Origin: an uncultured Bacteroidales bacterium
Lineage (GTDB): Bacteria > Bacteroidota > Bacteroidia > Bacteroidales > Paludibacteraceae
DNA length: 60,550 bases
Assembly: GCA_900319035.1 (NCBI GenBank)
Contig: ONMU01000012.1
Span: forward strand, 1 to 60,550
Reading direction: 5' to 3'
In this document: piece by piece, positions 12,568-25,508 of the stretch
Layout of the letters: the number at the start of each line of letters is the position of its first letter
Numbering within the stretch: position 1 is the first letter of the stretch
Program-made: the position numbers and the translations under genes
Notes under the pieces: generated by a model
What the model was told of the DNA's origin: nothing
Database searches by the model: none
What the model saw: only the letters and a program-made list of their open reading frames with translations

Positions 12568-12609
12568 TATCCGTGATTATTGGAAGTGAAACTTTAAATA
12601 TTGAATATT

Positions 12610-13995
12610 ATGACAAATAAAGAACATTGGTTATTGTATTTTGAGGATAAGCGTTTTCGTCAAAAATCAGCGACAATCCCAAGTGATGGAAGAAATCCGT
12701 TTGAAAATGATTACGGACGATTGATTTCAAGTGCTCCAATTCGTCGATTACAGGATAAGACGCAAGTGTTTCCCCTGGATAAAAATGATTATATTAGAAC
12801 TCGTTTAACGCACTCATTAGAGGTTTCATATATAGCGAGTTCTTTAGGGCAGAGCATAGAAAAATTTCTAATTGAAGAAAAAGAGGATATTAGCCAGCAT
12901 AAACGCGGATATTTAAGTTCGTTGTTGAGAACATGTGGTTTGATTCATGATCTTGGTAATCCACCCTTTGGTCATTTTGGAGAAATTGCTATTCAAGACT
13001 ATTTCAAGAAATTTTTTGATGAAAATCCTAAAATTGCCAGGAAATTTTCAGCGCAGGAGCGAGCGGATTTTGAGAATTTTGATGGAAATATACAAACATT
13101 CAGAATATTGTCGAAACTATATTATTTCGGCGATGAGTTTGGTTATAATTTATCATATTCTGCTCTTGCAACCATCGTAAAATATCCATCAGATTCTATT
13201 AACGGCAACAAGGGTTCAAGTAGTCCTCAAATAGCTTGTAAGAAAGCGGGATATTTTGCTTCAGAAGAAAGCCACTATAATCAAATCAATGATTATTTAC
13301 AATTAAATCATCGTAGGCATCCTGCAACTTATTTATTAGAGGCAGCTGATGATATTGCATATAGTGCAGCAGACATTGAGGATGGCGTAAAGCAGGGGAT
13401 CATATCAATTGAAGATATCGAAGAATTATTTGATAAATATCTTACAGAGAATAAGAGCGAAATTCTTAATTACATTAAGTCGTTAAAGCAAGAGTATCCA
13501 GAAAGAGGAAAACTGCGTGATTCTATCATTGTGCAGAAGATTCGTATATTTACGCAGCGTATAATGATAAGTAGTGTGATTGACACATTTATTGCTAATT
13601 ATGAGACAATAATGAAAGGTGAAATCGAGGATGAGTTGATAAATATATCGAATGCAAAAGATGTACGTAAAGTATATAAGAAGATACAGTCGAAAATATT
13701 TATGAGCAAATCTATTCTAAAAAAAGAGATTGCAGGAAGAGAAGCTATAATGGGACTGCTGAATATCTTCGTAAATGCTGCATTAACAGATAATTTTAAG
13801 GAAGATGGTGGGAATACTTTGGAATGCAGATTATATAATTTAATATCACCTTCATATAGGTTGGTGTACGAACAATATGAGAAATATAATAACCCGTTAT
13901 ATTGTAAATTGCGGTTGGTTGTGGATTTTGTAGCAGGAATGACGGATTCTTATGCAGTAGATCTATATCAAGAACTTAAAGGAATCAAATTATGA
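12610..13995 (+). CDS. dGTPase-like HD-domain dNTP triphosphohydrolase
   Basis: 461 residues from ATG 12610 (a TTG at 12601 is not needed). The HD metal-binding set is visible: RTRLTHSLEV (His68), GLIHDLGNPPFGHFGE (His113-Asp114) and YLLEAADDIAYSAADIEDGV (Asp248). RRLQDKTQVFPL at 45-56 matches dGTPases. The family converts dNTPs to deoxynucleosides and triphosphate; defence members starve phages of dNTPs. Length is normal. The gene is clearly A+T-richer than core genes to the right, suggesting transfer. Its last bases overlap the start of a nucleotidyltransferase gene (ATGA), so the two are coupled. Housekeeping Dgt is not excluded, but the context argues for defence. Confidence 0.88.
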   Translation: MTNKEHWLLYFEDKRFRQKSATIPSDGRNPFENDYGRLISSAPIRRLQDKTQVFPLDKNDYIRTRLTHSLEVSYIASSLGQSIEKFLIEEKEDISQHKRGYLSSLLRTCGLIHDLGNPPFGHFGEIAIQDYFKKFFDENPKIARKFSAQERADFENFDGNIQTFRILSKLYYFGDEFGYNLSYSALATIVKYPSDSINGNKGSSSPQIACKKAGYFASEESHYNQINDYLQLNHRRHPATYLLEAADDIAYSAADIEDGVKQGIISIEDIEELFDKYLTENKSEILNYIKSLKQEYPERGKLRDSIIVQKIRIFTQRIMISSVIDTFIANYETIMKGEIEDELINISNAKDVRKVYKKIQSKIFMSKSILKKEIAGREAIMGLLNIFVNAALTDNFKEDGGNTLECRLYNLISPSYRLVYEQYEKYNNPLYCKLRLVVDFVAGMTDSYAVDLYQELKGIKL

Positions 13996-14795
13996 GTGCA
14001 TTAACTGCAAATAATGCAACTGTAAAATTTTTTAAAGAACAATTATTGAGGTTACTAAGAAGCAACTCTGAATTGTCTGCTACCATATACGAAGTCTTTA
14101 TTAATGGGGGCTATGCATATGTGGTAGGTGGTTATGTGCGTGATTTGTTAAATAATACGCAAAGTAGAGACGTTGATATAATTATTGATTTGCCTAAGGA
14201 TAAGTTTGAAAGAATAATAAATACATATTGTACGAATTATTCGATTAATAGACATGGTGGGATAAAAATTCATATTGGTGATTTTTCCGTTGATATGTGG
14301 CGTATAGACGATAATTGGGCATTCAAAAATGAGTTAGTTAATTATAATGAGAATAACGTGTTAGAGAGCATAGCGGCAGGTTGTTTTTACGACTATGATG
14401 CGTTAGTCGTAAATATGCTTTCTGGTGGCTATAATATCCACTATTATACAGATTGTATAAGAAAAAAACAATTGGCAATTCTTAGACAAAATCCGAATTA
14501 TTCAAATCTTAATCCAACAGTTGAAGCGAATATTTTACGTGCGTTTTATTTAAAAAAGACTCAAAATCTAGATTTTTCATCGAGTGTTTCAAATTACATT
14601 ATCAATAAGATGCCGACAATATCTTTGGATATAAAAGAATCTCTACAGAAGCTATTAGACATAAAAAAAGGATACCCCAAATATGAAATATTAACAATGG
14701 ATTATATAAAACAAGAATACAGTAAGTTGCTATATTCTAATAATCAAATAACGAATGAACACTATCTTCTTTCTTATGATTTTTTGTTGTCTTAG
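13992..14795 (+). CDS. Pol-beta-fold nucleotidyltransferase (CCA-transferase-like head)
   Basis: 267 residues. YAYVVGGYVRDLLNNTQSRD (residues 41-60) followed by VDIIID and FSVDMWR (Asp101) reproduces the GG...DxD...D catalytic core of poly(A) polymerase/CCA-adding enzyme heads (Asp60, Asp62, Asp101). A NLNPTVEANILRAFYL-like helix matches the RNA-binding neck (RAFYL instead of the usual RALRF). The protein is shorter than tRNA CCA enzymes (about 400 or more) and lacks their HD and tail regions, so it is not the housekeeping enzyme. It overlaps the dGTPase gene by four bases, implying a joint function: for example modifying an RNA or protein, with the HD enzyme consuming nucleotides. That is inference. 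Confidence 0.8.
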   Translation: MSALTANNATVKFFKEQLLRLLRSNSELSATIYEVFINGGYAYVVGGYVRDLLNNTQSRDVDIIIDLPKDKFERIINTYCTNYSINRHGGIKIHIGDFSVDMWRIDDNWAFKNELVNYNENNVLESIAAGCFYDYDALVVNMLSGGYNIHYYTDCIRKKQLAILRQNPNYSNLNPTVEANILRAFYLKKTQNLDFSSSVSNYIINKMPTISLDIKESLQKLLDIKKGYPKYEILTMDYIKQEYSKLLYSNNQITNEHYLLSYDFLLS

Positions 14796-14880: not shown

Positions 14881-17442
14881 ATGAAGAAAAAAATAGGATT
14901 TTGGGCATTTGTGTGGCGTGAAATGAAAAAAGTGTCCGTGAAGGAGATTTTCTCATTCGTTATGGTCATCGTGGGGATATGTGCTGTTCTCTTCGCTATT
15001 GCGCCTCATATTGAAGCTTTTTTGAAAGATTGGTTGGTTAAGTGGGTGGAGCCTTTGGATGAATGGCCTGTGATAGCAGCAATTTATGTGGTTACGCTAT
15101 TGGGAATTGGAGCCTATCTGCATGAATATTTCAAAAATATTCGTCTTTCAGCTCATTGGTGGGGATTTTGGATTATAGTAACCATCATATACACATACTA
15201 TCGAGCAATCAATCAATCGGTATTCGAATTTTGGAATATAGGGTGGTGGGGATGGATGGATATCCTTTATGTAATAGATATGGTTATCGTAATGAGCGAT
15301 ATATCATATATTCTCCATGCATGGAAACAAGAGCGTGACGTTGCTGATTCGAGAAGTGAGCTACTGAGAGATGATGCAATAACAAAACGGAGCGAAGACC
15401 TATTAAGATACGCAGGTATAGCGGATGAGTTGAAAAGTAGAATTGATGAAGTGGATTTGAGTAATCGTGCATATAGCGTTGGTATAGCCGGAGAATGGGG
15501 AATTGGTAAGAGCTCATTGCTAAACTTATTCGCAAATAATGCAGAAGAGGATGGGCAGATTGTAGTCCGTTTTGCTCCGAGAAGTGCCAAAAATGTAGAC
15601 TTGATACAGGAAGAGTTTTTCTCGGTATTTACCCATGAGTTAAGAAAGTATAGTTTTATGGCCGATAGAATAATCGGTAAATATGCCTATGCATTGAACC
15701 TACATACCTCAACGAGATGGGTATATGCTATCTTAGACTGGTTCGAAAACTGGACTGCGGAATCAGAGCGTGAAAAGATAAATGCCATTGTCCGTTCAAT
15801 AGGAAAGCGAGTTTATGTGATAATTGAGGATTTGGACAGATTGACAGGAAAAGAGATATTAGAGGTGTTGAAACTGATAGATGCGAATGGCAACTTTTGT
15901 AATACAGTGTTTATTACTGCTTATGATAAAACATATGTGAACGGTGTGTTGCAGAGGGAGATTGATTATGAAGGGGCAAACAGAGATTTTACGGATAAGT
16001 ATTTCCAATACGAATGGCCGCTATTTAAACAGCAACCGATAGACATATACAGGTATTTGTACCAAAACATATATCTCTGGGTTATTCGGGAGTGTAAAGA
16101 TAAAGGTCTCACAGATTTGCAAGGTCAAATAGACCAAGAGTGGACACACGTGTATGGGAAATTGATAGACCATTTAGCGACGCTACGTCAGGCAAAACGT
16201 TATATCAATCTATTCCGGTCGTCTTATAGAAAAGTGATAAAGAATGTTGATTTTGCAGATTTTGTAGTGGTTACATTGATACGGTTCTTAGATATGGATG
16301 CATATCGAGATATTTATATGAAGAAATATCTGGCATTTGAGGGAAAAATATTTACAGACAGAAAAGCTTATCGGTTAGGGGATAAGTACAAGGAATATGC
16401 TGTATCAAAGAAAATACATAATTTATCATTCTTGGTAGAATCTCTATTTCCGAATGAAGGAAGTTATCGTCAATTTGATTCCCAATATAATAGAATCAAC
16501 CGAGCAGATGCCTTTGATAATTATTTTTTCAATGAGATAGAAGGAAAGTTGTATTATGAGGATATTAATCTCATGATGATTGAGGCGACACTAGATGACG
16601 CATTGGCGCGTTTTGATACCTATATTCATGTTGATAATCCACAACAACGTTTGGAGAGTATTCAAGAATTTTTGATGTTCCGTGATCCAAAATGGGTACA
16701 GTCGGAAGAGCGTTTGACGCGTTATGTATGCCTTGTGATTTATGCAGTTGAGAAGATCAACAATTTCTATATCTTATCAACTTTGAATGGGATCTTACTG
16801 CTGAGGAAAATGGAATCTTATGAAGGTATAATGAGTCGAGATGAATACAGGGAAGGAGTGATGAATGCTTTTGATATAATGCTGAAACATGCTCCGATAG
16901 CAGTCAATATGTATATGAGTACGCGTTTGAGAGATCGCTATGCAGAAAGAGAATCAGACGAACTAATATATATCGACCCCATTGAGTTTGACCAGTTGAT
17001 GGTAAGTGAATCGCAAAAACAATATGATTCTTTATGGGGGAACGTAAGATGGAGTGCATCCCAATCATTAAAGATGGCTGCAAGTATAGAGAGAGAGGGC
17101 GAGGGACAAAAGAAATTGAGGTTAAAACAACTGAAGACAATGGTGCTATTGCATCCGGATGATTATGCAAAAAGCATGATGCATTTTGATACCCAATCGT
17201 CGAACAAAACATACATGATAGTGAGTCTGTTGTTTATAGAACTGGTTATAGAAGCCATTGGAGAAAAGAGATTGAAGAAATGGATACAGAGTATGGTGAA
17301 TGAGGATATACGATATATTGTAGAAAGATTGTGTACAGAGAGGGTAAATGGCAATAGGGCTGCGTTGCGTATTGAACAATATGTTGAGAATCCTGAGCAG
17401 CACTTGGATTTGGTGGCAGAGTTGATGAAGAAAGTTAATTAA
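14881..17442 (+). CDS. KAP-family membrane P-loop NTPase
   Basis: 853 residues. Four hydrophobic segments (about 24-45, 63-80, 93-108, 126-146) precede the NTPase domain. Walker A is GEWGIGKS (204-211) and Walker B VYVIIEDLDR (311-320), with FAPRSAKN and FITAYD as in KAP NTPases; the intramembrane hairpins before or within the P-loop domain are a KAP hallmark. After residue about 400 comes a long helical region without recognised motif. KAP NTPases are predicted signalling ATPases at the membrane and recur in phage-defence loci. The gene is followed after 17 bases by the STAND gene and probably heads the five-gene operon to 23878. Confidence 0.85.
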   Translation: MKKKIGFWAFVWREMKKVSVKEIFSFVMVIVGICAVLFAIAPHIEAFLKDWLVKWVEPLDEWPVIAAIYVVTLLGIGAYLHEYFKNIRLSAHWWGFWIIVTIIYTYYRAINQSVFEFWNIGWWGWMDILYVIDMVIVMSDISYILHAWKQERDVADSRSELLRDDAITKRSEDLLRYAGIADELKSRIDEVDLSNRAYSVGIAGEWGIGKSSLLNLFANNAEEDGQIVVRFAPRSAKNVDLIQEEFFSVFTHELRKYSFMADRIIGKYAYALNLHTSTRWVYAILDWFENWTAESEREKINAIVRSIGKRVYVIIEDLDRLTGKEILEVLKLIDANGNFCNTVFITAYDKTYVNGVLQREIDYEGANRDFTDKYFQYEWPLFKQQPIDIYRYLYQNIYLWVIRECKDKGLTDLQGQIDQEWTHVYGKLIDHLATLRQAKRYINLFRSSYRKVIKNVDFADFVVVTLIRFLDMDAYRDIYMKKYLAFEGKIFTDRKAYRLGDKYKEYAVSKKIHNLSFLVESLFPNEGSYRQFDSQYNRINRADAFDNYFFNEIEGKLYYEDINLMMIEATLDDALARFDTYIHVDNPQQRLESIQEFLMFRDPKWVQSEERLTRYVCLVIYAVEKINNFYILSTLNGILLLRKMESYEGIMSRDEYREGVMNAFDIMLKHAPIAVNMYMSTRLRDRYAERESDELIYIDPIEFDQLMVSESQKQYDSLWGNVRWSASQSLKMAASIEREGEGQKKLRLKQLKTMVLLHPDDYAKSMMHFDTQSSNKTYMIVSLLFIELVIEAIGEKRLKKWIQSMVNEDIRYIVERLCTERVNGNRAALRIEQYVENPEQHLDLVAELMKKVN

Positions 17443-17459
17443 GAGAATATGATTGATGT

Positions 17460-20400
17460 ATGGACGAGAAGGATAGGATAATAGAGCAACACGGGGATCG
17501 GAATGTGGCGATTATTGCAGAGAATGGGTCAAAGGTTGAAGTGAATCAGTCTTTAATGCAGACTTCTGCGGATGTGTCTCGTCCGTTGGAGATACATGGA
17601 AGTAAGATCGGAGATAGTCATATAGATAGGAAAGAGACGAAAGAGTTATTGGAGTGGGTACATATAGAACAAGAACCCAAAGACGAAAATAAACGGATTA
17701 CACTTTTGTTAGGTGCAGCCGGTAGCGGTAAGTCCGTTATCATGAAAGATGTGCTACTTGCGCTGCAAAAAGAGCAGAAATGTGAGGTAATAGCTTTAAA
17801 ATCGGATATTATCTATGATGATGAAGGTGATAAGAGTCTGGATGAACGAGCCAATTTAGGCAAATCCATAAAGCAATATATTGAAGAATCAGCCAAGAAA
17901 CAAAGGACGGTATTGCTAATAGATCAAGTAGATGCCCTTTCTGTGGTGCTATCTTCCCATCGTAAGCCATTGGCAGAAATCATGAGTTTGGTGACTGCGG
18001 CATCTAAGATAGAGAATGTCCGAATTATTATGTCATGCCGACAATATGATTTCTACTACGATCAATCGTTTGCTGAATTACAGACAAGCAATAAGGTTTT
18101 CGTGGAAGGACTGAGTGATGATGAGGTACTGCGGGTGTTGAAAGAAAATGGAATGCCGACAGAGAATATACCAACGGAGTTGATGCGGTTATTGAAGAAT
18201 CCGTTGCACCTGTCGTTGTACTACATCATAAATTCTACTATCACGCAGAAGAAAATAAGAACGTTGTCTGACTTGTACTCTTGTTTGTGGGATAAGATGC
18301 TGAATAGTTATTCGGGTAAACCGAAAGATATCGTTGAGTTCTTATGGACGTTTGCTTATAACTTATATACCCGTCAAACATTATCTCTACATCCCAGCTT
18401 GATTCCATCGGAATGGCATCATGTGGGGAATTTCTTACAATCGAACGGTTTTATTGTGAAGAACAATGGTGTGTGGCAGTTTATGCACCAGACATTATTT
18501 GACTATGTATTTGCTCGCTTGTTCTTTGAGAAGCACCAAACACTGAATGATATCTTCAAAGACCAACATCAAGGGTTGTTTGTGCGGAATCAACTGAAGC
18601 AGGTGTTGGACTATCAGCGCGCAACGGATCCGAGAGGTTTTATTAGGAATGTAAGAACAATATTGTTTGAGAAGGAGCCGGATGGTTTTAAGTATCTATA
18701 CCGATTCCATATTCGTCATCTGGTATTGTCGATGTTGGCAAGTTATGAACCGCTTAATCGACAAGAAGAGATCCTCATCGAAAAGGAAATATTCAAGAAA
18801 AAGGAGTATCGGTATCACTTCACCAATGCGACGATAACGTTAGCCGGGTTCAATGTGTATAAAAAGTGGTTAGAAGACCAAGGTGGCTTTTTTGCGGCAG
18901 AAGAAGATTCGCAGCGATATATGCTAACGATAATCAGTAAGGTGATATACGGATATAAGAACGAAGTGTTGTCGTATGTGCGGGAATTGTGTGATCCCCG
19001 ATTAAAAGACGAATATCGAAAGAGATTGATTATTATCATTGACAGGTTGGGGTATGTTGAGTGGAGCAAGGATTTGTCATATGTGATAGACTATTTCGAT
19101 AAAGAGGATAGTGATATCATATTTGCGACGCTACTGCACTCGAATATAGATCAAGTGACGTTGGTGAGTGAACGGGTGAAGAGATGCGTTCGCTCCATAT
19201 ACCAGAACGAGCCGGAGGATGTATTGCGATTCCATCCAACCATTCCGCATGAGGTGCATCTGCTATATGATGATTTACGAAAGAAGTATCCAAAGGTTGC
19301 GTATGATTTGGCGTATGATTTGGTGCGTTATATAGCCGAGTTGTCTGTGGAGGATTTTCAAGATGAATTAAAATCTTCACAAGCATTTTGGACATATAAT
19401 CGCAAGGATTCGTTGGCTAATCGGTTCCACGAAGAAATGACGGATGACATGATGGATTATTTAGAGGGGAATGTCGGAAAAATGTCAGATGCAGAGTACG
19501 TGTTGGAGTTGGATAAATTGACAAAAACGAACTTGGCTATATTGCATGTGGTTGCATCTGCGGCAATGAAGGTGTCGGTTGACAAACACGAGAGATATGT
19601 GTTTGAATATCTGAAGACCAATATCAATCGCAATTATCATTCTTCAACGTTAAAGTTTTATCATATTGAATTGTTCAAGGCTTGGCTATCTGTTAATACA
19701 TCTGATAAGGCATTAGGGGAATTGCTGGATGTTATTAGAACGATTCATCCAGATTGGGAGAAAGTGGCATGGCCGTACGAGAATCGAAAGGTGCCTTTGA
19801 CGCGAGTTGGTTTTACGCAAGCACAATACTATAAAAACGTGCCGGAGGAGAAACTACGGCAATATCCGGAAATATACCGGTTTTATAAGGAAAGTAAAGA
19901 GAAATACGGGAATCTTGAATGTGAGGAACCGCATGGAGTACAAGTACATATCGGATATACGTCCGTCAAACGCGGTGTAATGGATCATCTTAAAAATGAT
20001 GAGGATTTCATGAAAATGATGCGAGCGTATGTTACGGACGATTTACATGATTTTGAGAAGCCTACATTGTCGGGAGTATCAGGAGAAATGGCAGCAAGAG
20101 TCGCTGATGAACCGGATAGATACTATAGGATATACGAGAAGGCACTATCGGATAGAACCATTTCAATCCAGTATTGTATGGACGGAGTGGAAGCACTGAT
20201 GAAGGCCGAGTATATCAAAGAGAGGATAGACACATTATATGTTCGGTTGATAAATGAGGCATTATGCAGACCCGATACGAAGCAACCGGCAACGAATATC
20301 ACATTATGCCGTTTCTGCGACTACTATACGAAGAATCCGCAGAAGCACATGCCAAGAGGGGTTTTTGACTATGTAAAATCGGTGGCGTTGCATCCCACGA

Positions 20401-21365
20401 GCGATGTAGATGAAGCAGTGGATATTGATTATAATATACCGATTAACCGTGAGCGAGGACGTGCTATTTGGGTGCTGATGGAATGTCTGTATGATGAGGA
20501 GTATGTGAGTGAAATCTTTCCAACGTTATTTGCAATCGTGCCGGAAGCATCGGTAACGAGTAAAGTGGGAATGCTATTTATGATGGCATATCTGCTGAAT
20601 GTGGATAGGAAAAAGACGTTGGAGTTGTTTCTTGAGGTAACGAAGGATTATAATCATAACTACTTTACTTTGCCAATTCATAATGGCAATCCGTTATTGT
20701 ACTTGATTCGGACGAATTTTAATGAGTTAGTGCCATATTTAACAGCTGCAACAAAGTGCGAGAAGGGCAATGATGTTACAGCGAACTTGTTATTCCGTGC
20801 TTGGATTTTAGGAAATGAAACTGCAAAGTCGATGTTGCTGGATTTCGCAGACCAATCACCGATTGCGAGAAATCAGCTGATAGATATGATAGCGCGAAAT
20901 TGCAGTAGGGATTTTGTGAATCCGATGTATGAGGTGCTGTTGCGGTATCTGAATTATAAGGACGAGAATCTAGGACAAAAATACGATTATGTGTTTGAGC
21001 ATTTAAGTGCGTGGAAATCGTTCTTCCCAACACGTGAATATCTGGATAAGTTCCAACGTTCGGAGGTGAGTATGTATTGCAGTCATTATATACATAATTA
21101 TTTGAAGTTCTTGGCTAATGAAGATCCTGAGTATTGCTTGAGTTTTTTGGCGAACTATTATGCTCAGCGTGCGAAAATACAAAATATGGAGTATTATGAG
21201 TTGCGCGAGATAACTGAGATTTTGATTGCAGCATATAATAATGTGCGGACATACGACATCGACAATGAGTCGTTGGAGCGTGCAATGGATATGTTGGATG
21301 AGTTGCTGGAGAAGGAGGATGTAAACAGTTATTTGGACAAGTGTTTGAACACGTTAGCGGAGTAG
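17460..21365 (+). CDS. STAND-family NTPase (NLR-like) with N-terminal beta motif and helical repeats
   Basis: 1301 residues. Order: a short Gly/Asn-containing motif at residues 10-30 (QHGDRNVAIIAENGSKVEV is its core); NTPase with Walker A GAAGSGKS (85-92), Walker B VLLIDQVD (151-158) and sensor IIMSCRQYDF (189-198); NPLHLSLYY (247-255), as in STAND helical domains; a winged helix with WQFMHQTLFDYVFARLF (339-355); then about 900 residues of HEAT/TPR-like helices as the likely sensor. There is no effector domain in the protein; the next gene is a TIR whose C-terminus matches the N-terminal motif. It is therefore probably an NLR-like phage sensor that recruits a separate TIR effector. The trigger is unknown. 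Confidence 0.85.
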   Translation: MDEKDRIIEQHGDRNVAIIAENGSKVEVNQSLMQTSADVSRPLEIHGSKIGDSHIDRKETKELLEWVHIEQEPKDENKRITLLLGAAGSGKSVIMKDVLLALQKEQKCEVIALKSDIIYDDEGDKSLDERANLGKSIKQYIEESAKKQRTVLLIDQVDALSVVLSSHRKPLAEIMSLVTAASKIENVRIIMSCRQYDFYYDQSFAELQTSNKVFVEGLSDDEVLRVLKENGMPTENIPTELMRLLKNPLHLSLYYIINSTITQKKIRTLSDLYSCLWDKMLNSYSGKPKDIVEFLWTFAYNLYTRQTLSLHPSLIPSEWHHVGNFLQSNGFIVKNNGVWQFMHQTLFDYVFARLFFEKHQTLNDIFKDQHQGLFVRNQLKQVLDYQRATDPRGFIRNVRTILFEKEPDGFKYLYRFHIRHLVLSMLASYEPLNRQEEILIEKEIFKKKEYRYHFTNATITLAGFNVYKKWLEDQGGFFAAEEDSQRYMLTIISKVIYGYKNEVLSYVRELCDPRLKDEYRKRLIIIIDRLGYVEWSKDLSYVIDYFDKEDSDIIFATLLHSNIDQVTLVSERVKRCVRSIYQNEPEDVLRFHPTIPHEVHLLYDDLRKKYPKVAYDLAYDLVRYIAELSVEDFQDELKSSQAFWTYNRKDSLANRFHEEMTDDMMDYLEGNVGKMSDAEYVLELDKLTKTNLAILHVVASAAMKVSVDKHERYVFEYLKTNINRNYHSSTLKFYHIELFKAWLSVNTSDKALGELLDVIRTIHPDWEKVAWPYENRKVPLTRVGFTQAQYYKNVPEEKLRQYPEIYRFYKESKEKYGNLECEEPHGVQVHIGYTSVKRGVMDHLKNDEDFMKMMRAYVTDDLHDFEKPTLSGVSGEMAARVADEPDRYYRIYEKALSDRTISIQYCMDGVEALMKAEYIKERIDTLYVRLINEALCRPDTKQPATNITLCRFCDYYTKNPQKHMPRGVFDYVKSVALHPTSDVDEAVDIDYNIPINRERGRAIWVLMECLYDEEYVSEIFPTLFAIVPEASVTSKVGMLFMMAYLLNVDRKKTLELFLEVTKDYNHNYFTLPIHNGNPLLYLIRTNFNELVPYLTAATKCEKGNDVTANLLFRAWILGNETAKSMLLDFADQSPIARNQLIDMIARNCSRDFVNPMYEVLLRYLNYKDENLGQKYDYVFEHLSAWKSFFPTREYLDKFQRSEVSMYCSHYIHNYLKFLANEDPEYCLSFLANYYAQRAKIQNMEYYELREITEILIAAYNNVRTYDIDNESLERAMDMLDELLEKEDVNSYLDKCLNTLAE

Positions 21366-21368
21366 GAT

Positions 21369-22043
21369 ATGGAGATTTATATATCATATAGTTGGGCGCC
21401 ACCGATAAAAGCTATCATGAGGAATTGGCTGTGTCCTATTTTGAAGGCTAACCATGTAGATTATATCATCGATGAGAAAGATTGCGGATATGGACATGAT
21501 ATAGTAAAGTTTGAAAAAGAAATAGGCAAGGCAGATAATGTGTTGATTATGGTATCGAAATCGTATTTCAAGTCGAATAATTGTATGTACGAAATGGCAT
21601 TGATCATGAAGTATACTAACCTGAGGAAGAATCGCTTGTGGGTCAGTGCTGATGATTTTAATAGGGATGAGAATGAGTATGATGCCATATTTGAGAGTTG
21701 GAATAAAGAGTTAGCAAGAATCAACAAGAAACTAACAGGAGATGTGAATAGGGATAGATACTACAATGAGAAGATAGAAAAGATAAAACTAATTCTTCAA
21801 TATTTTCCAGATGCATGGCAGCAGATTATGAATAAGAACACCTTGTCGTTTGAGAAAATATCGGCGAATAACTTTCAGGAGCTGTTGGAATATATAAAGA
21901 AGGAAGTTCTACTGGAAGAACCAAACTCCGATTTGCCAATGGATATTGGGGACGCACCTGGAGGGACTACAATTATCCAAAATGGAAATAATTGTGTGGC
22001 TGCGACGATTAATAATGGAGGAACGATGACGATAAATATGTAA
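21369..22043 (+). CDS. TIR-domain effector with C-terminal amyloid-like motif
   Basis: 224 residues. EIYISYSW (2-9), DEKDCGYG (35-42) and VLIMVSKSYFKSNNCMYEMA (58-77) define a TIR domain; Glu75 sits where catalytic NADase glutamate is found. Bacterial TIR effectors usually degrade NAD+ or make cyclic ADP-ribose signals. After a helical stretch and a linker, the C-terminus has an Asn/Gly-rich segment (204-224; core QNGNNCVAATINNGGTMTI) that aligns without gaps to residues 10-30 of the STAND protein encoded 3 bases upstream. GGAG lies just before ATG 21369. No signal peptide. The operon position and shared motif mark it as the STAND protein's effector. Confidence 0.87.
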   Translation: MEIYISYSWAPPIKAIMRNWLCPILKANHVDYIIDEKDCGYGHDIVKFEKEIGKADNVLIMVSKSYFKSNNCMYEMALIMKYTNLRKNRLWVSADDFNRDENEYDAIFESWNKELARINKKLTGDVNRDRYYNEKIEKIKLILQYFPDAWQQIMNKNTLSFEKISANNFQELLEYIKKEVLLEEPNSDLPMDIGDAPGGTTIIQNGNNCVAATINNGGTMTINM

Positions 22044-22065: not shown

Positions 22066-22788
22066 ATGAAACGGATGGAGGATAAGAAACTTGAATATTA
22101 TTTGGAGCGGAAGGATGTTATAGAGCGGTATTTTCGTGGTGGGCAGTTCGTGGATGCGAAGCGGGAGGTGTTGCGGTTGAGGAAGGAGATGGAAGAGGAT
22201 GCAGATGTGCCGAAGGATTTGCTGAGTGATATTTACTACAAGTTATATCATTTGGCATGGATGCAGGAAGACAAGGAAAATGCATTTAAGTTCGCAGAAA
22301 AGGCAGCTGAGCTTCATCCGAATGCAGAAGGGAAGTTGCAAATATATAGCAATTTAGCGACTAATGCACTGCAAAGGGACTTGTTGGACGAGGCGAATCA
22401 GTATGTAGAGAAATGTGTAGGCTTGCTGTCGGAAAACACGCCCAATGCGTGGTATGTGTGTTATCTCAAGGGAAAGATTCAGTTGAAAAAAGGAGATCAG
22501 AAAGCCGCATTAGAGGAGTTTACGAGTTCGGCAAAAGAGGCAAATCGAATGCATTTGCCATACGGTGAGATTGCTGCGACTATCTATGTCGCGGAAGTGC
22601 TCTTTCAACTGGGATTGAAGCATAACGCATTGTCGGAGATTGCGCGAATAGAAATGTATGCCAAACGAACAAGGCAGTTGCAGCAATACTTACGGGTGTT
22701 AATTAAGAAGGCGCAGTTGCTATATCGTATGGGAAGCAAAGATGAGGCTGAACAAGTAGTGCTAACTATTCCTGAGTTTGATGACTGA
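22066..22788 (+). CDS. TPR-repeat protein
   Basis: 240 residues, wholly helical, with about five tetratricopeptide repeats: the AWMQEDKENAFKFAEKAAEL and YLKGKIQLKKGDQKAALEEF segments are typical, and GSKDEAEQVV closes the series. TPR proteins are scaffolds; none of the residues suggest catalysis. It lies 22 bases after the TIR gene and its end overlaps the FRG gene, so it may bind and control FRG or connect it to the STAND-TIR complex. The start could be ATG 22066 or ATG 22075. Function is inferred from context only. Confidence 0.8.
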   Translation: MKRMEDKKLEYYLERKDVIERYFRGGQFVDAKREVLRLRKEMEEDADVPKDLLSDIYYKLYHLAWMQEDKENAFKFAEKAAELHPNAEGKLQIYSNLATNALQRDLLDEANQYVEKCVGLLSENTPNAWYVCYLKGKIQLKKGDQKAALEEFTSSAKEANRMHLPYGEIAATIYVAEVLFQLGLKHNALSEIARIEMYAKRTRQLQQYLRVLIKKAQLLYRMGSKDEAEQVVLTIPEFDD

Positions 22789-23878
22789 TATGACAGAAGA
22801 AGAGAAACGTGCTTTGCCAACGATTTTGGATGTGCTGGAAGAGTTGGCTGAGAAGGAATATTTTTGGCATAAGGATTGGGCGCGACAGCCTAATTTCTTA
22901 GCACCTCATTTTGCAGAAGATGGGGAGTATATGATAACTGCTATAAAGTCCCATTCAAGGCAGTATAAGTTATTGCCGGGTTCGCAATCGACTTTTACTT
23001 TATATCGGGGACAAAACAGATATTTTTCCAATTGCGTTCCTTCACTATATCGGAAACCGAAGGCGTATACGGAGGATGAGTGGACGGTGATTAGTCGTGT
23101 GCGGACTGCGGAGTTCATGTGGATTTTGATTAAACATCCGGTGGTTAGGGAGATGCAATCGAGGATCGTTGTGGATTTGGTTCCCTTGGCGCAGCATTAT
23201 GGTTTTCCAACAGAATACATGGATATCACAAATAATAAATGGGTGGCTGCTTTCTTTGCTGTGACGCAATTTGATGATGACACCTATACACCTGTGGATG
23301 AGCAATTTGAGGAAGGGGTAGGTGTGTTCTATGTGGCAGATCCGAAAGAAAATATGGCACAACAGCAATTGTGGTTTGAAGACAAATTACAGACGTTGGG
23401 CTTTCAGTATTTTGCGCGACCCACGAGGCAATACTCGATGGTTTATCGAATGGATGAGAAGGAGGATTTTAACCAGATCGTGGGATGGAGAAAGATTTTG
23501 TTCAGGCATGATAGACGAGCTTCGGAGATTGTGTATAACATGGCATGGAATCAGGAGCGTTGGTTTCCAAAGGATGTGCTTTCGGATAAGGCGCGGATGA
23601 TTCGTTCGGACGGGTATGAAGTGTCAGAAGGTGCAATTAAATTGGCGATACCGAAATTTAATCTATCGCAATCTGAGGATGAGGTAAAAGCGATATTAGA
23701 GCGAAATGGTTTGAGGTGGCATGCGGGAGATGAGATTGCAGCCGATTATACGGAGGTGGAAATAGCTGATGATTGGCGGCAGTGGTGTGAGTTCGGACGT
23801 GCGGATTTAATGAGGAGAATTAAACAACCGTTTTGGTTGTATGACTTGCCGGAGGGAGTGTTAAAGAAAAATGGCTAA
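22781..23878 (+). CDS. FRG-domain protein, likely toxin-like effector
   Basis: 365 residues from ATG 22781 (ATG 22790 also possible; both lie at the end of the TPR gene, whose stop is at 22786-22788). The domain is named for its Y/F-R-G motif, seen as LYRGQNRYFSNCVPSLYR (74-91). LAQHYGFPTEYMDITNNKW (136-154) then AAFFA is the second conserved block. FRG proteins are common in phages, toxin loci and defence islands; their activity is not settled. As the last gene of the operon it may be a second effector beside TIR. The 3' end is followed by a C8A7 tract and the Fic control region. Confidence 0.83.
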   Translation: MTDMTEEEKRALPTILDVLEELAEKEYFWHKDWARQPNFLAPHFAEDGEYMITAIKSHSRQYKLLPGSQSTFTLYRGQNRYFSNCVPSLYRKPKAYTEDEWTVISRVRTAEFMWILIKHPVVREMQSRIVVDLVPLAQHYGFPTEYMDITNNKWVAAFFAVTQFDDDTYTPVDEQFEEGVGVFYVADPKENMAQQQLWFEDKLQTLGFQYFARPTRQYSMVYRMDEKEDFNQIVGWRKILFRHDRRASEIVYNMAWNQERWFPKDVLSDKARMIRSDGYEVSEGAIKLAIPKFNLSQSEDEVKAILERNGLRWHAGDEIAADYTEVEIADDWRQWCEFGRADLMRRIKQPFWLYDLPEGVLKKNG

Positions 23879-23911: not shown

Positions 23912-24000
23912 TCGCAGAAAATTTAGTAAAAATTAGAAATATTCGCGAAAATTTTAGTAAAAGAGGCGATTTAATTTGTTTATTCGCAAAAATTTTCGTA
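23912..24000 (+). promoter_or_regulatory. Three operator-like repeats before the Fic gene
   Basis: TCGCAGAAAATTTAGTA (23912-23928), TCGCGAAAATTTTAGTA (23943-23959) and TCGCAAAAATTTTCGTA (23984-24000) are the same 17-base element on the same strand. Starts are 31 and 41 bases apart, about three and four helix turns, so all face one side of DNA. The third copy fills the promoter spacer and first bases of -7. Binding by the N-terminal DNA-binding-like part of the Fic protein would give autoregulation; that is inference. Confidence 0.65.
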
Positions 24001-24006
24001 TCTTTG
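23975..24006 (+). promoter_or_regulatory. Fic gene promoter
   Basis: TTTG at 23975-23978, 20 bases, TATCTTTG at 23999-24006. It lies downstream of an in-frame ATG at 23976, which is why ATG 24030 is taken as the Fic start. Confidence 0.8.
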
Positions 24007-24029
24007 CAGCGGATTTTGTAAAAAAGCAT

Positions 24030-25508
24030 ATGGCAGGGATAGATTTATACAAGGAGATCGTGTTCGGATCGGCAGACTCGACAACGGCTCAACGGATATC
24101 AGACCTGGAGAAGCAAGGTAAATTGCGGAAGATTGCTCCACGTCTGTACACTACCAACATGAAAGATAGTCCGGAGGCGATTGTGCGACGTAACCTGATA
24201 GAGATATTGGTATGGCGTTTTCCGAATGCAATAATCAGTCACCGCAGTGCGTACGAGATGCGTCCTACCGGTGCCGGTGAGTTATTCCTGACAACGACGC
24301 AGAACAGACGCATAACCGACTTGCCGGGATTGGGCGTGAACCTGATCAAAGGGCATGGGGCGCTGAAGAGCGACATTCCCTACATGGGCATATACATCTC
24401 GTCGGAGAGCCGATGGATACTGGAGGTGCTGGAGTCGTCGCGTAAGAGTGGGGACGAGAGTAAGAGTCTGCCGCAGACATTTGTGGAGGAGCGGCTGGAG
24501 AAGATGATGCTGCAGCAAGGTGAAGCGAAGCTGAATGCATTCCGTGATCAGACGCGTGAAGTGGCGCAAGAGTTGGGGTTGACGAAGGAGTTTGAGAAGT
24601 TGAACAAGATCATATCGGCCTTGCTATCGACGCATCAAGCAGACGTGCTGCAATCGGCATCGGCAGTGGCTACGGCAGCCGGAGAACCGTATGATGCGTC
24701 ACGATTGGAGCTGTTTGACGTGCTGTTTGAGCAACTGAACAATCGGTTCTTCACGAGTCTGCCGGTGCGTTATCCGGACGAGGAGAGTTTTCGGATGTTT
24801 GCGTTCTTTGAGAGTTATTTCTCGAACTACATCGAGGGGACGGAGTTTATTGTGGATGAGGCGAAAGAGATCATCGATTCGGGACTGCCGAAGCCGCGAC
24901 GCGATGAGGATTCGCATGATATATTAGGTACGTATCGGGTGGTGAGCAACCGTGAGGAGATGAGTCGTGTACCGCACAGCAAGCAGGAACTGTTTGATCT
25001 GTTGCGTCATCGTCATGCGGTGCTGTTGCAGGGTCGTCCGAGTATGCAGCCGGGGATGTTCAAGCAGCAGAATAACCGAGCCGGAGACACGGTGTTTGTG
25101 GATGCGCGGTTGGTACAAGGGACATTGGCAAAGGGTTTTCAACGGTATGAGGCGCTGCAGGATCCGGTGGCCAGGGCGATATTCATGATGTTCATGATCA
25201 GCGAGGTGCATCCGTTCAACGACGGGAATGGACGAATGGCGCGAGTGATGATGAATGCGGAACTGGTGCATGCTGACCAGTGCCGGATCATCGTGCCGAC
25301 AGTGTTCAGGTTGGATTATCTGCTGACGCTGCGTAAGTTGAGTAGGCAGAAGAATCCCGAGGCGTATATCCAGGTAATGCAGAAACTGCATGCTTTCAGT
25401 CAGAACCTTTACGGCTTTGATTATGAGGCGATAAATCGGTATCTATTGGCGTGCAATGCGTATGAGGAGCCGGAGAATGCGCGGCTGATTGTGACGGAGA
25501 GGGAGTAA
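24030..25508 (+). CDS. Fic-family protein with N-terminal AbiEi-like winged helix
   Basis: 492 residues. Residues 1-100 (YKEIVFGSADSTTAQRISDL, GKLRKIAPRLYTTNMKD, ISHRSAYEMRPT) resemble the AbiEi-type antitoxin wing-helix seen in Abi systems. The catalytic motif HPFNDGNGRMAR starts at His394, with all residues for AMP or other nucleotide transfer. FSNYIEGTEF includes S-x3-E-G (Ser265, Glu269), the inhibitory-helix signature of self-inhibited Fic enzymes. This makes it an auto-inhibited AMPylator or similar, with its own DNA-binding-like head that may bind the three repeats upstream. Longer N-terminal version from 23976 would begin inside the promoter. G+C is higher than in the defence genes before it. 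Confidence 0.88.
   Translation: MAGIDLYKEIVFGSADSTTAQRISDLEKQGKLRKIAPRLYTTNMKDSPEAIVRRNLIEILVWRFPNAIISHRSAYEMRPTGAGELFLTTTQNRRITDLPGLGVNLIKGHGALKSDIPYMGIYISSESRWILEVLESSRKSGDESKSLPQTFVEERLEKMMLQQGEAKLNAFRDQTREVAQELGLTKEFEKLNKIISALLSTHQADVLQSASAVATAAGEPYDASRLELFDVLFEQLNNRFFTSLPVRYPDEESFRMFAFFESYFSNYIEGTEFIVDEAKEIIDSGLPKPRRDEDSHDILGTYRVVSNREEMSRVPHSKQELFDLLRHRHAVLLQGRPSMQPGMFKQQNNRAGDTVFVDARLVQGTLAKGFQRYEALQDPVARAIFMMFMISEVHPFNDGNGRMARVMMNAELVHADQCRIIVPTVFRLDYLLTLRKLSRQKNPEAYIQVMQKLHAFSQNLYGFDYEAINRYLLACNAYEEPENARLIVTERE

What the first reader, a model, noticed from the sequence alone, without database searches (positions are those of the whole stretch)
17487..22040. STAND NTPase and TIR effector share a short matching motif at opposite ends
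Residues 10-30 of the STAND protein (17487-17549) and residues 204-224, the extreme C-terminus, of the TIR protein (21978-22040) align over 21 positions without gaps: Q, G, V, A, N, G, N identical and most other positions Asn/Gly/beta-branched in both. The STAND NTPase has no effector domain, and the TIR protein no sensor. Prion-like signalling motifs (bacterial amyloid signalling sequences, and HET-s/RHIM in fungi and animals) are placed exactly so: N-terminus of the NLR, C-terminus of the neighbouring effector. I infer that STAND oligomers template TIR assembly and NAD+ loss. This pair, with its size and extra partners, may be undescribed.
Basis: partly seen in the sequence, partly recalled or inferred. 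Interest (0 to 1): 0.92.

Follow-up and report, generated by a model that had tools for sequence, protein, structure and literature searches.

The report
Matched motif couples immune sensor, effector
Two neighbouring bacterial genes, a large sensor-like NTPase and a probable NAD-cutting TIR enzyme, carry the same short motif at opposite ends, and related gene pairs have either both copies or neither, so the motif very probably lets the sensor switch on the enzyme, perhaps by prion-like stacking.

Summary
In detail: STAND residues 10-30 and TIR residues 204-224 match gaplessly, 7 of 21 identical. Their score, 36, is reached by 0 of 247 adjacent gene pairs and 0.26% of 30,000 random head-tail pairs. 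Alone that is modest; homologues make it convincing. Of 81 loci with a STAND relative, 15 carry a recognisable head motif. Of the 13 with a downstream gene, 12 have a TIR neighbour with the motif; L055 has no partner. Six other TIR-adjacent STANDs lack it on both sides; one extra TIR-like gene in L052 lacks it. The relatives closest to the window's clade lack both copies. Cognate motifs resemble each other more than permuted ones; the TIR tail is conserved (50%) behind a variable linker (20%). PLD-like proteins and a 68-aa membrane-like peptide carry the motif too. This is the logic of bacterial amyloid signalling (BASS) pairs, but no Pfam or NCBIfam family fits and the RHIM core is absent; BASS1-10 profiles were not available. 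Amyloid formation and NAD+ loss are inferred. A review already mentions BASS with TIR: a new variant of a known kind.

The parts
17460..21365 (+). STAND NTPase (1301 aa): motif head, P-loop NTPase, ~860-residue C-terminal region aligned in full-length homologues (presumed sensor)
   Evidence: Pfam nSTAND1 29.6 bits (cut-off 27.1), nSTAND_NTPase5 33.8 (cut-off 34), NACHT 23.6 (cut-off 26.7); homologues, alignment
17487..17549 (+). STAND-side signalling motif, residues 10-30
   Evidence: pairwise match to the TIR tail; motif in the head of 15 of 81 homologue loci
17712..17735 (+). Walker A / P-loop G-A-A-G-S-G-K-S of the STAND
   Evidence: read from the sequence; A87, G88, G90, K91 invariant in the 5-row alignment
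21369..22043 (+). TIR effector (224 aa), starts 3 bases after the STAND stop
   Evidence: Pfam TIR_2 39.8 bits, cut-off 28; gap from coordinates
21582..21593 (+). C72-x-x-E75 of the TIR domain, putative catalytic glutamate
   Evidence: C72 and E75 invariant in 16 of 16 aligned TIR effectors; catalytic role recalled from TIR NADases, not tested
21903..21968 (+). variable linker between TIR body and tail motif
   Evidence: mean pairwise identity 20% in 13 effectors, against 45% in the body and 50% in the tail
21978..22040 (+). TIR-side signalling motif, residues 204-224, extreme C-terminus
   Evidence: with the STAND motif one of only two hits of motif profile A3 in the whole 2.48 Mb genome (the profile contains both)

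Best explanation
A two-gene immune (abortive-infection-like) module in which a STAND receptor activates a separate TIR enzyme through a shared ~22-residue homotypic motif. The C-terminal region of the STAND senses a trigger (inferred); the NTPase oligomerises (inferred from STAND biology) and brings its N-terminal motifs together; these form a small beta-arch/cross-beta nucleus onto which the C-terminal motifs of TIR proteins stack (inferred); the clustered TIR domains become active NADases and deplete NAD+ (inferred from the conserved Cys-x-x-Glu and from known TIR enzymes). Shown here: the matched motif and its placement, the tail as a conserved island, joint presence or absence on both proteins, cognate-pair similarity, overlapping or nearly touching genes, and the same motif on other kinds of partner.
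For: (1) A profile made from 13 effector tails and no STAND sequence finds the STAND heads of 15 of 81 scanned loci at i-E 5e-9 to 0.03 among 1,107 proteins from 87 loci; the first unrelated protein comes at E 1.2. The reciprocal profile of 13 STAND heads finds the effector motifs of these loci except those of L046 and the window. (2) Of 13 motif-bearing STANDs with a downstream gene, 12 have a TIR neighbour bearing the motif; 6 TIR-adjacent STANDs have it on neither side. In L046 the tail is called by pairwise score (47), not by the profile. (3) Window and L046 nest (SH-aLRT 98, quick tree) with L047, L048, L049, which have TIR neighbours, other STAND N-termini and no motif on either protein. 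(4) Cognate similarity beats permuted pairs: 14 pairs p=0.0001; 12 pairs without window and L046 p=0.015. (5) Tail identity 50% against linker 20% in 13 TIR effectors. (6) tblastn with two natural motif peptides of other species (L073 tail, L051 head) finds, among 72,556 plasmid records, exactly the Segatella copri effector tail (E 0.03) and STAND head (E 5e-4). (7) In a Nostoc plasmid protein a SEFIR/TIR domain is fused in front of the same STAND core. (8) Two hydrophobic triplets (+6 to +8, +15 to +17), set apart by a polar stretch with 31 of 34 N11 and invariant G13, after an invariant Q0-x-G2, fit strand-turn-strand. (9) STAND and effector genes lie -14 to +5 bases apart in 15 of 16 pairs measured.
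Against: No fibril, seeding, NADase or phage data exist here. No structure was predicted (tool switched off). The window's own copies are too divergent for the family profile, so some STANDs counted as motif-less could hold a divergent motif; I saw none by eye in the heads and tails of the six TIR-adjacent ones. L055 has a (weak) motif STAND and no other motif protein in its 17.8 kb. In L052 a second TIR-like gene (+2) lacks the motif. In L103 the effector motif is internal (383-402 of 496) and in L071/L072 the STAND motif follows a hydrophobic N-terminal segment, so the terminal position is not absolute. On the STAND side the motif (45%) is hardly more conserved than its linker (41%). Kinship is not controlled in the cognate test. 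The tree gives only 2-3 independent switches; head and tail labels were entered as equal (as one search had them), so one search counts switches and does not test concordance, and the place of L049 is unsure (long branch).
Confidence: 0.62

Rival explanations
1. The shared motif is a homotypic or heterotypic beta docking element (strand pairing or a solenoid rung in a finite complex), not an amyloid: it recruits TIR to the STAND oligomer, or holds it inactive, without open-ended templating.
For: All comparative evidence shows coupling, not fibrils. The best library matches are weak repeats of strand-loop-strand or curlin type (TIGR04415 E 0.009; Curlin_rpt E 0.0066; each 1 of 34 members).
Against: The same motif on both partners, at NLR head and effector tail, is the published arrangement of amyloid signalling motifs (PMC12261475 introduction); closed docking pairs are usually two different surfaces (general knowledge).
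Confidence: 0.28
2. The similarity is a relic of a duplicated or shared ancestral segment, or of low-complexity Asn/Gly sequence, without function.
For: The window pair alone is only moderately beyond chance (0.257% of random pairs), and the family profile misses it.
Against: Tail conserved behind a variable linker; both or neither in TIR pairs; cognate similarity; the motif also on PLD-like and membrane-like proteins.
Confidence: 0.03
3. STAND and TIR are coupled by contacts between their folded domains; the motif only tunes localisation or stability.
For: L047, L048, L049, L056 and L059 have STAND-TIR neighbours without the motif, so other couplings exist.
Against: In L047, L048 and L049 a different N-terminal segment of about 150-180 residues takes the place of the motif, as if one coupling module had replaced another.
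Confidence: 0.07

Closest known systems
BASS (bacterial amyloid signalling sequences) in NLR/Bell gene pairs
   Same: Short motif at the N-terminus of an NLR-like STAND and the C-terminus of the effector encoded next door; similar length (20-40 residues for BASS).
   Different: Effector is TIR instead of Bell; the hosts found here are mostly Bacteroidales, where BASS were described mainly in multicellular Actinobacteria and Cyanobacteria; consensus Q-x-G-x-K-S-[IV]-Y-[IV]-E-x-N-x-G-x-I-x-I. The review notes BASS with TIR or CHAT as the less frequent case.
BASS3 / RHIM / PP motifs
   Same: Window STAND head matches the BASS3 peptide printed in PMC8086366 at 6 of 9 core positions.
   Different: (I/V)-Q-(I/V)-G core in 0 of 34 motifs; the score lies between the 95% and 99% quantiles of shuffled motifs; no Pfam RHIM or PP hit.
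Fungal HET-S/NWD2, sigma and PUASM signalosomes
   Same: NLR head and effector tail share a motif; pairs or triplets of collocated genes (PMC12261475 introduction).
   Different: Motif sequence and effector; no Pfam HET-S, PP or sigma hit.
Fused TIR/SEFIR-STAND proteins (e.g. Nostoc sp. C057 plasmid)
   Same: Same STAND core with a TIR-like effector.
   Different: Effector covalently fused in front of the core, where the window STAND has its motif.
Curli (CsgA/CsgB) repeats
   Same: Weak Curlin_rpt match of the window STAND motif.
   Different: Below the curated cut-off, 1 of 34 members; single copy in a protein without such repeats.

Membership tests
BASS / NLR amyloid signalling pair | Similar motif at NLR N-terminus and C-terminus of the neighbouring effector | tested here: met
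BASS / NLR amyloid signalling pair | Match to one of the BASS1-10 profile HMMs | not testable with these tools
   profiles not held and the founding paper not held; no credible Pfam or NCBIfam match
BASS / NLR amyloid signalling pair | Bell (helical, membrane-targeting) effector | tested here: not met
   effector is TIR; the review allows TIR as a rarer effector
BASS / NLR amyloid signalling pair | Peptides form fibrils and the NLR motif seeds the effector motif | not testable with these tools
   needs the bench
RHIM / PP / BASS3 | (I,V)-Q-(I,V)-G core | tested here: not met
   0 of 34 motifs; core definition from PMC7885112 (passages)
Curlin repeat (PF07012) | Score above the curated cut-off | tested here: not met
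   16.8 bits against 20.7, 1 of 34 members
STAND NTPase | Walker A and STAND-type NTPase profile | tested here: met
   nSTAND1 29.6 bits, cut-off 27.1; G88, G90, K91 invariant in 5 rows
STAND NTPase | Ligand-driven oligomerisation | not testable with these tools
   no structure or assay
TIR NADase | TIR fold profile | tested here: met
   TIR_2 39.8 bits, cut-off 28
TIR NADase | Catalytic glutamate kept | tested here: met
   E75 invariant in 16 of 16 aligned effectors; its catalytic role is recalled
TIR NADase | NAD+ cleavage | not testable with these tools
   needs an assay

The most novel reading that the evidence does not exclude
A previously unnamed family of signalling-amyloid motif in single-celled gut, rumen and oral Bacteroidales works as a standard plug: one STAND sensor recruits several different executioners that share only the motif, namely a TIR enzyme, a PLD-like (nuclease or phospholipase) protein and a one-pass membrane peptide, and motif and counter-motif are exchanged as a matched set in evolution. 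Amyloid signalling would then not be tied to multicellularity or to pore-forming effectors.
Probability: 0.42. Interest if true: 0.77.

Novelty: new variant of a known kind. Interest (0 to 1): 0.66.

Why it matters
It would extend prion-like immune signalling, known mainly from fungi, animals and multicellular bacteria, to ordinary Bacteroidales (Segatella copri, Porphyromonas pasteri, Prevotella pallens among the loci; their human habitat is recalled) and to an enzyme effector whose output, NAD+ loss, is easy to assay. The natural collection of matched and motif-less pairs makes specificity and templating directly testable.

Tried and rejected
Curli relationship: the window STAND motif hits Curlin_rpt at E 0.0066 as a 24-mer and 0.042 in a 60-residue context, but an unrelated family scored E 0.0093 for another head in the same scan, so I treat it as chance level. 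RHIM/BASS3 homology: left as unproven. Beta-helix tail fibres: profile A3 gives only E of 0.71 or worse in PDB sequences. Phage origin: no STAND relative in the phage collection (S. copri query), no motif tail there, 0 matches of one motif DNA pattern in viral contigs, none with the window STAND alone and 1 motif-less STAND relative with the alignment (L126); no relative of the L053 PLD-like protein. The five TIR relatives from viral contigs were not examined further. KAP, TPR, FRG and Fic neighbours as part of the module: at E 1e-5 relatives occur only in L050, L072, L074 (Fic), L051 (KAP, FRG) and L052 (TPR, FRG) of 86 other loci. Motif elsewhere in Bacteroidota: 3 of 395 phylum genomes and 3 of 393 order genomes have a hit, each count including the window's own genome; P. 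pasteri is the other certain one and the rest lie at E about 0.005 in frames of 24-51 aa. Rows left out of A3: the divergent heads of L055 and L058, and L134 (found later). Amyloid predictors were not run; PMC8086366 (passages) reports that generic predictors do poorly on BASS.

Full report
WHAT WAS CLAIMED AND WHAT IS THERE. The STAND ORF (17460-21365, 1301 aa) and the TIR ORF (21369-22043, 224 aa) are separated by 3 bases. Pfam finds STAND/NACHT-type NTPase profiles in the first and TIR_2 (39.8 bits, cut-off 28) in the second.

CHANCE. The local score of STAND head against TIR tail is 36. Of 5,000 double shuffles 0.06% reach that. Of 30,000 random head-tail pairs from 517 proteins in loci without the motif, 0.257% do; of 247 adjacent co-directional pairs none does. 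In the window each is the other's best partner among 56 ORFs. This is suggestive, not overwhelming.

HOMOLOGUES. A scan of 84,980 species genomes with five aligned STANDs returned 156 relatives, of which the best 80 were kept as loci; a viral-contig scan added one. Most relatives outside the motif group have a longer N-terminus; of the examples given to Pfam only L105 (Mrr_cat) passes a cut-off among the Bacteroidota, while L122 (Mrr_cat_2) and L104 (DUF4365) match below theirs. A group of Bacteroidales instead has a short head with the consensus [IV]-N-Q-x-G-x-K-S-[IV]-Y-[IV]-E-x-N-x-G-x-I-x-I, and the next gene carries the same motif, as a rule at its end. Examples are Porphyromonas pasteri, Prevotella pallens, a Segatella copri plasmid, and MAGs from rumen, gut and other sources.

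CROSS-DETECTION. A profile of 13 effector tails, containing no STAND sequence, finds 15 of the 81 STAND heads (E 5e-9 to 0.03) among 1,107 proteins of 87 loci, before the first unrelated protein at E 1.2. It also finds internal motifs in L053, L121 and L103. The reverse profile of 13 STAND heads finds the effector motifs, first unrelated protein at E 2.5. Both profiles miss the window pair and the L046 tail (E 2 or worse, or not listed). With the pooled profile A3 the whole window genome has exactly two hits, the two in question; A3 contains both, so this shows specificity, not sensitivity. Without its own two sequences the profile misses the window's copies. They form a subclass with L046 (46% identical STAND), whose pair scores 47; the window/L046 cross scores are 38 and 29, against a 99% null quantile of 31 (the null is gapped local, the pair scores ungapped).

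BOTH OR NEITHER. Genes -2 to +3 of each STAND were checked. Of 81 STAND loci 15 bear the motif in the head (i-E up to 0.05). Two of these (L054, L072) are cut at the contig end. Of the other 13, 12 have a TIR protein next door with the motif. In L046 the tail is called by pairwise score only; in L103 the motif is internal, 383-402 of 496; in L057 and L073 the effector is split into two frames. L055, a weak motif, has no partner. L052 has a second TIR-like gene (+2) without the motif. Of the 66 STANDs without the motif, six have a TIR neighbour by a local TIR profile (L047, L048, L049, L056, L059, L100) and none of these has the motif; L049's TIR gene is broken and its open piece is not called by Pfam. 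Because the profile misses divergent copies such as the window's, I also looked by eye at the heads and tails of these six and saw none. L121 has motif proteins two and three genes upstream of a STAND without the motif; that contig starts inside them. With the window and S. copri added, 14 STAND-TIR pairs have both, 6 neither. The sequences are related: the tree needs 3 changes among these 20 rows, 2 of them independent on well-supported branches; head and tail were entered with equal labels, so this counts switches only.

THE WINDOW'S CLADE. Window and L046 join L047, L048 and L049 with SH-aLRT 98 in a quick tree; L049 is a long branch whose place is unsure. These three have TIR neighbours without the tail, and their STANDs have a different N-terminal segment of 150-180 residues that Pfam does not name with confidence. 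Head and tail motifs were thus gained, swapped or lost together near the window.

COVARIATION AND CONSTRAINT. Cognate head-tail similarity exceeds permuted pairings: mean 50.6 against 41.8 for 14 pairs (p 0.0001, 20,000 permutations), 52.1 against 48.6 for 12 pairs without window and L046 (p 0.015); kinship is not controlled and second partners (L058, L071) were left out. In 13 TIR effectors the body is 45% identical, the linker 20%, the tail 50%. On the STAND side the motif (45%) is not clearly more conserved than its linker (41%). Two natural motif peptides from other species, used as tblastn queries against 72,556 plasmid records, each hit one place only: the S. copri effector tail and the S. 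copri STAND head.

ANATOMY OF THE MOTIF. Over the 34 copies of A3, Q0, G2 and G13 are invariant and N11 is present in 31; positions +6 to +8 and +15 to +17 are hydrophobic in 74-100%, and between them lies a polar stretch with the N-x-G. The heads of L055 and L058 were not in A3, and L058 lacks G13. The pattern suits strand-turn-strand, as expected of a beta-arch; no structure could be predicted.

OTHER PARTNERS. The motif also sits in PLD-like proteins (L053:12139-13326 and L121:905-2464, PLDc_2 77 and 75 bits, motif between an unnamed ~210-residue domain and the PLD domain, with a further segment between in L121), at the tail of a 249-aa protein with the same unnamed domain (L071), at the tail of a 332-aa open-ended frame without a Pfam match (L121), and at the end of a 68-aa peptide with one hydrophobic helix-like stretch (L058). 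One locus can hold STAND, TIR and a third motif protein (L053, L058, L071). In L071 and L072 the STAND carries a hydrophobic, membrane-like N-terminal segment before the motif. Membrane character and the unnamed domain were judged by eye.

FUSION EVIDENCE. In Nostoc sp. C057 a SEFIR/TIR domain is fused directly in front of the same STAND core (28% identity, E 6e-30; SEFIR E 3.9e-15). This supports TIR as effector of this STAND and the head position as the effector slot.

MECHANISM. Most likely the STAND oligomerises on a trigger, its clustered heads form a cross-beta nucleus, TIR tails stack on it, and clustered TIR domains cleave NAD+. Coupling by the motif is strongly supported; cross-beta templating is inferred by analogy with NLR amyloid signalling; NADase activity is inferred from E75 (invariant in 16 of 16). 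Trigger and phage defence are unknown.

KNOWN OR NEW. NLR/effector pairs with amyloid motifs are known in fungi and, as ten BASS families, in bacteria, mainly with Bell effectors in Actinobacteria and Cyanobacteria; the review PMC7889193 (passages seen) says BASS occur less often with TIR or CHAT, and PMC12261475 (introduction and one results section seen) speaks of pairs or triplets. The founding paper (J Mol Biol 2020) is not held. Eight full-text searches listed no paper on this motif or on such Bacteroidales TIR pairs, as far as the listed titles and abstracts and the passages I opened show; the library lacks most subscription journals. No Pfam or NCBIfam family explains the motif; the RHIM core is absent in 34 of 34. 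I therefore file it as a new variant of a known kind, with BASS1-10 membership untested.

Noticed in passing
L053:12139-13326; L121:905-2464; L071:12149-12898: Unnamed ~210-residue domain followed by the signalling motif, with or without a C-terminal PLD-like domain, encoded beside or near motif-bearing proteins.
   Followed up: partly
L058:12126-12332: 68-aa peptide: one hydrophobic, helix-like stretch plus the motif, third gene after STAND and TIR in a Tannerella MAG; possible minimal membrane effector.
   Followed up: partly
L057:10890-12103; L073:10944-12156: The ~400-aa TIR effector is split into two frames in P. pallens and P. pasteri although the tail motif is intact: pseudogene, sequencing error or programmed frameshift.
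   Followed up: no
L071:6635-7100; L072:6617-7080: STAND with a hydrophobic, membrane-like N-terminal segment preceding the motif: possible membrane-anchored sensor variant.
   Followed up: no
L134 (contig G636:C342): Truncated STAND head with a clear motif in another genome of the window's family; grouped with L058 in the tree; partner gene beyond the contig end.
   Followed up: partly
L052:12401-13372: Second TIR-like gene without the motif, directly after the motif-bearing TIR gene.
   Followed up: no
window 22066-23878: TPR and FRG-domain genes follow the TIR gene; a similar TPR-FRG pair lies downstream of the STAND-TIR pair in L052 (14505-16319), and an FRG-related protein precedes the STAND in L051 (5030-6958).
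   Followed up: partly
window 23976-25508: Fic protein with a close relative directly upstream of the STAND in L050 (3906-5429, E 2.6e-207) and weak relatives upstream of the STANDs in L072 and L074.
   Followed up: no
window 14881-17442: KAP P-loop NTPase with hydrophobic N-terminal segments ends 17 bases before the STAND start; among the 86 other loci searched it has one relative, L051:16399-17883, in the same locus as a motif STAND.
   Followed up: partly
window 12601-14795: dGTPase-like HD protein and a poly(A)-polymerase-head protein upstream of KAP; the stretch looks like a defence island.
   Followed up: no
L103:10920-12410: TIR effector with the motif internal and a C-terminal segment of ~94 residues that recurs, by eye, in the L121 PLD-like protein.
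   Followed up: no
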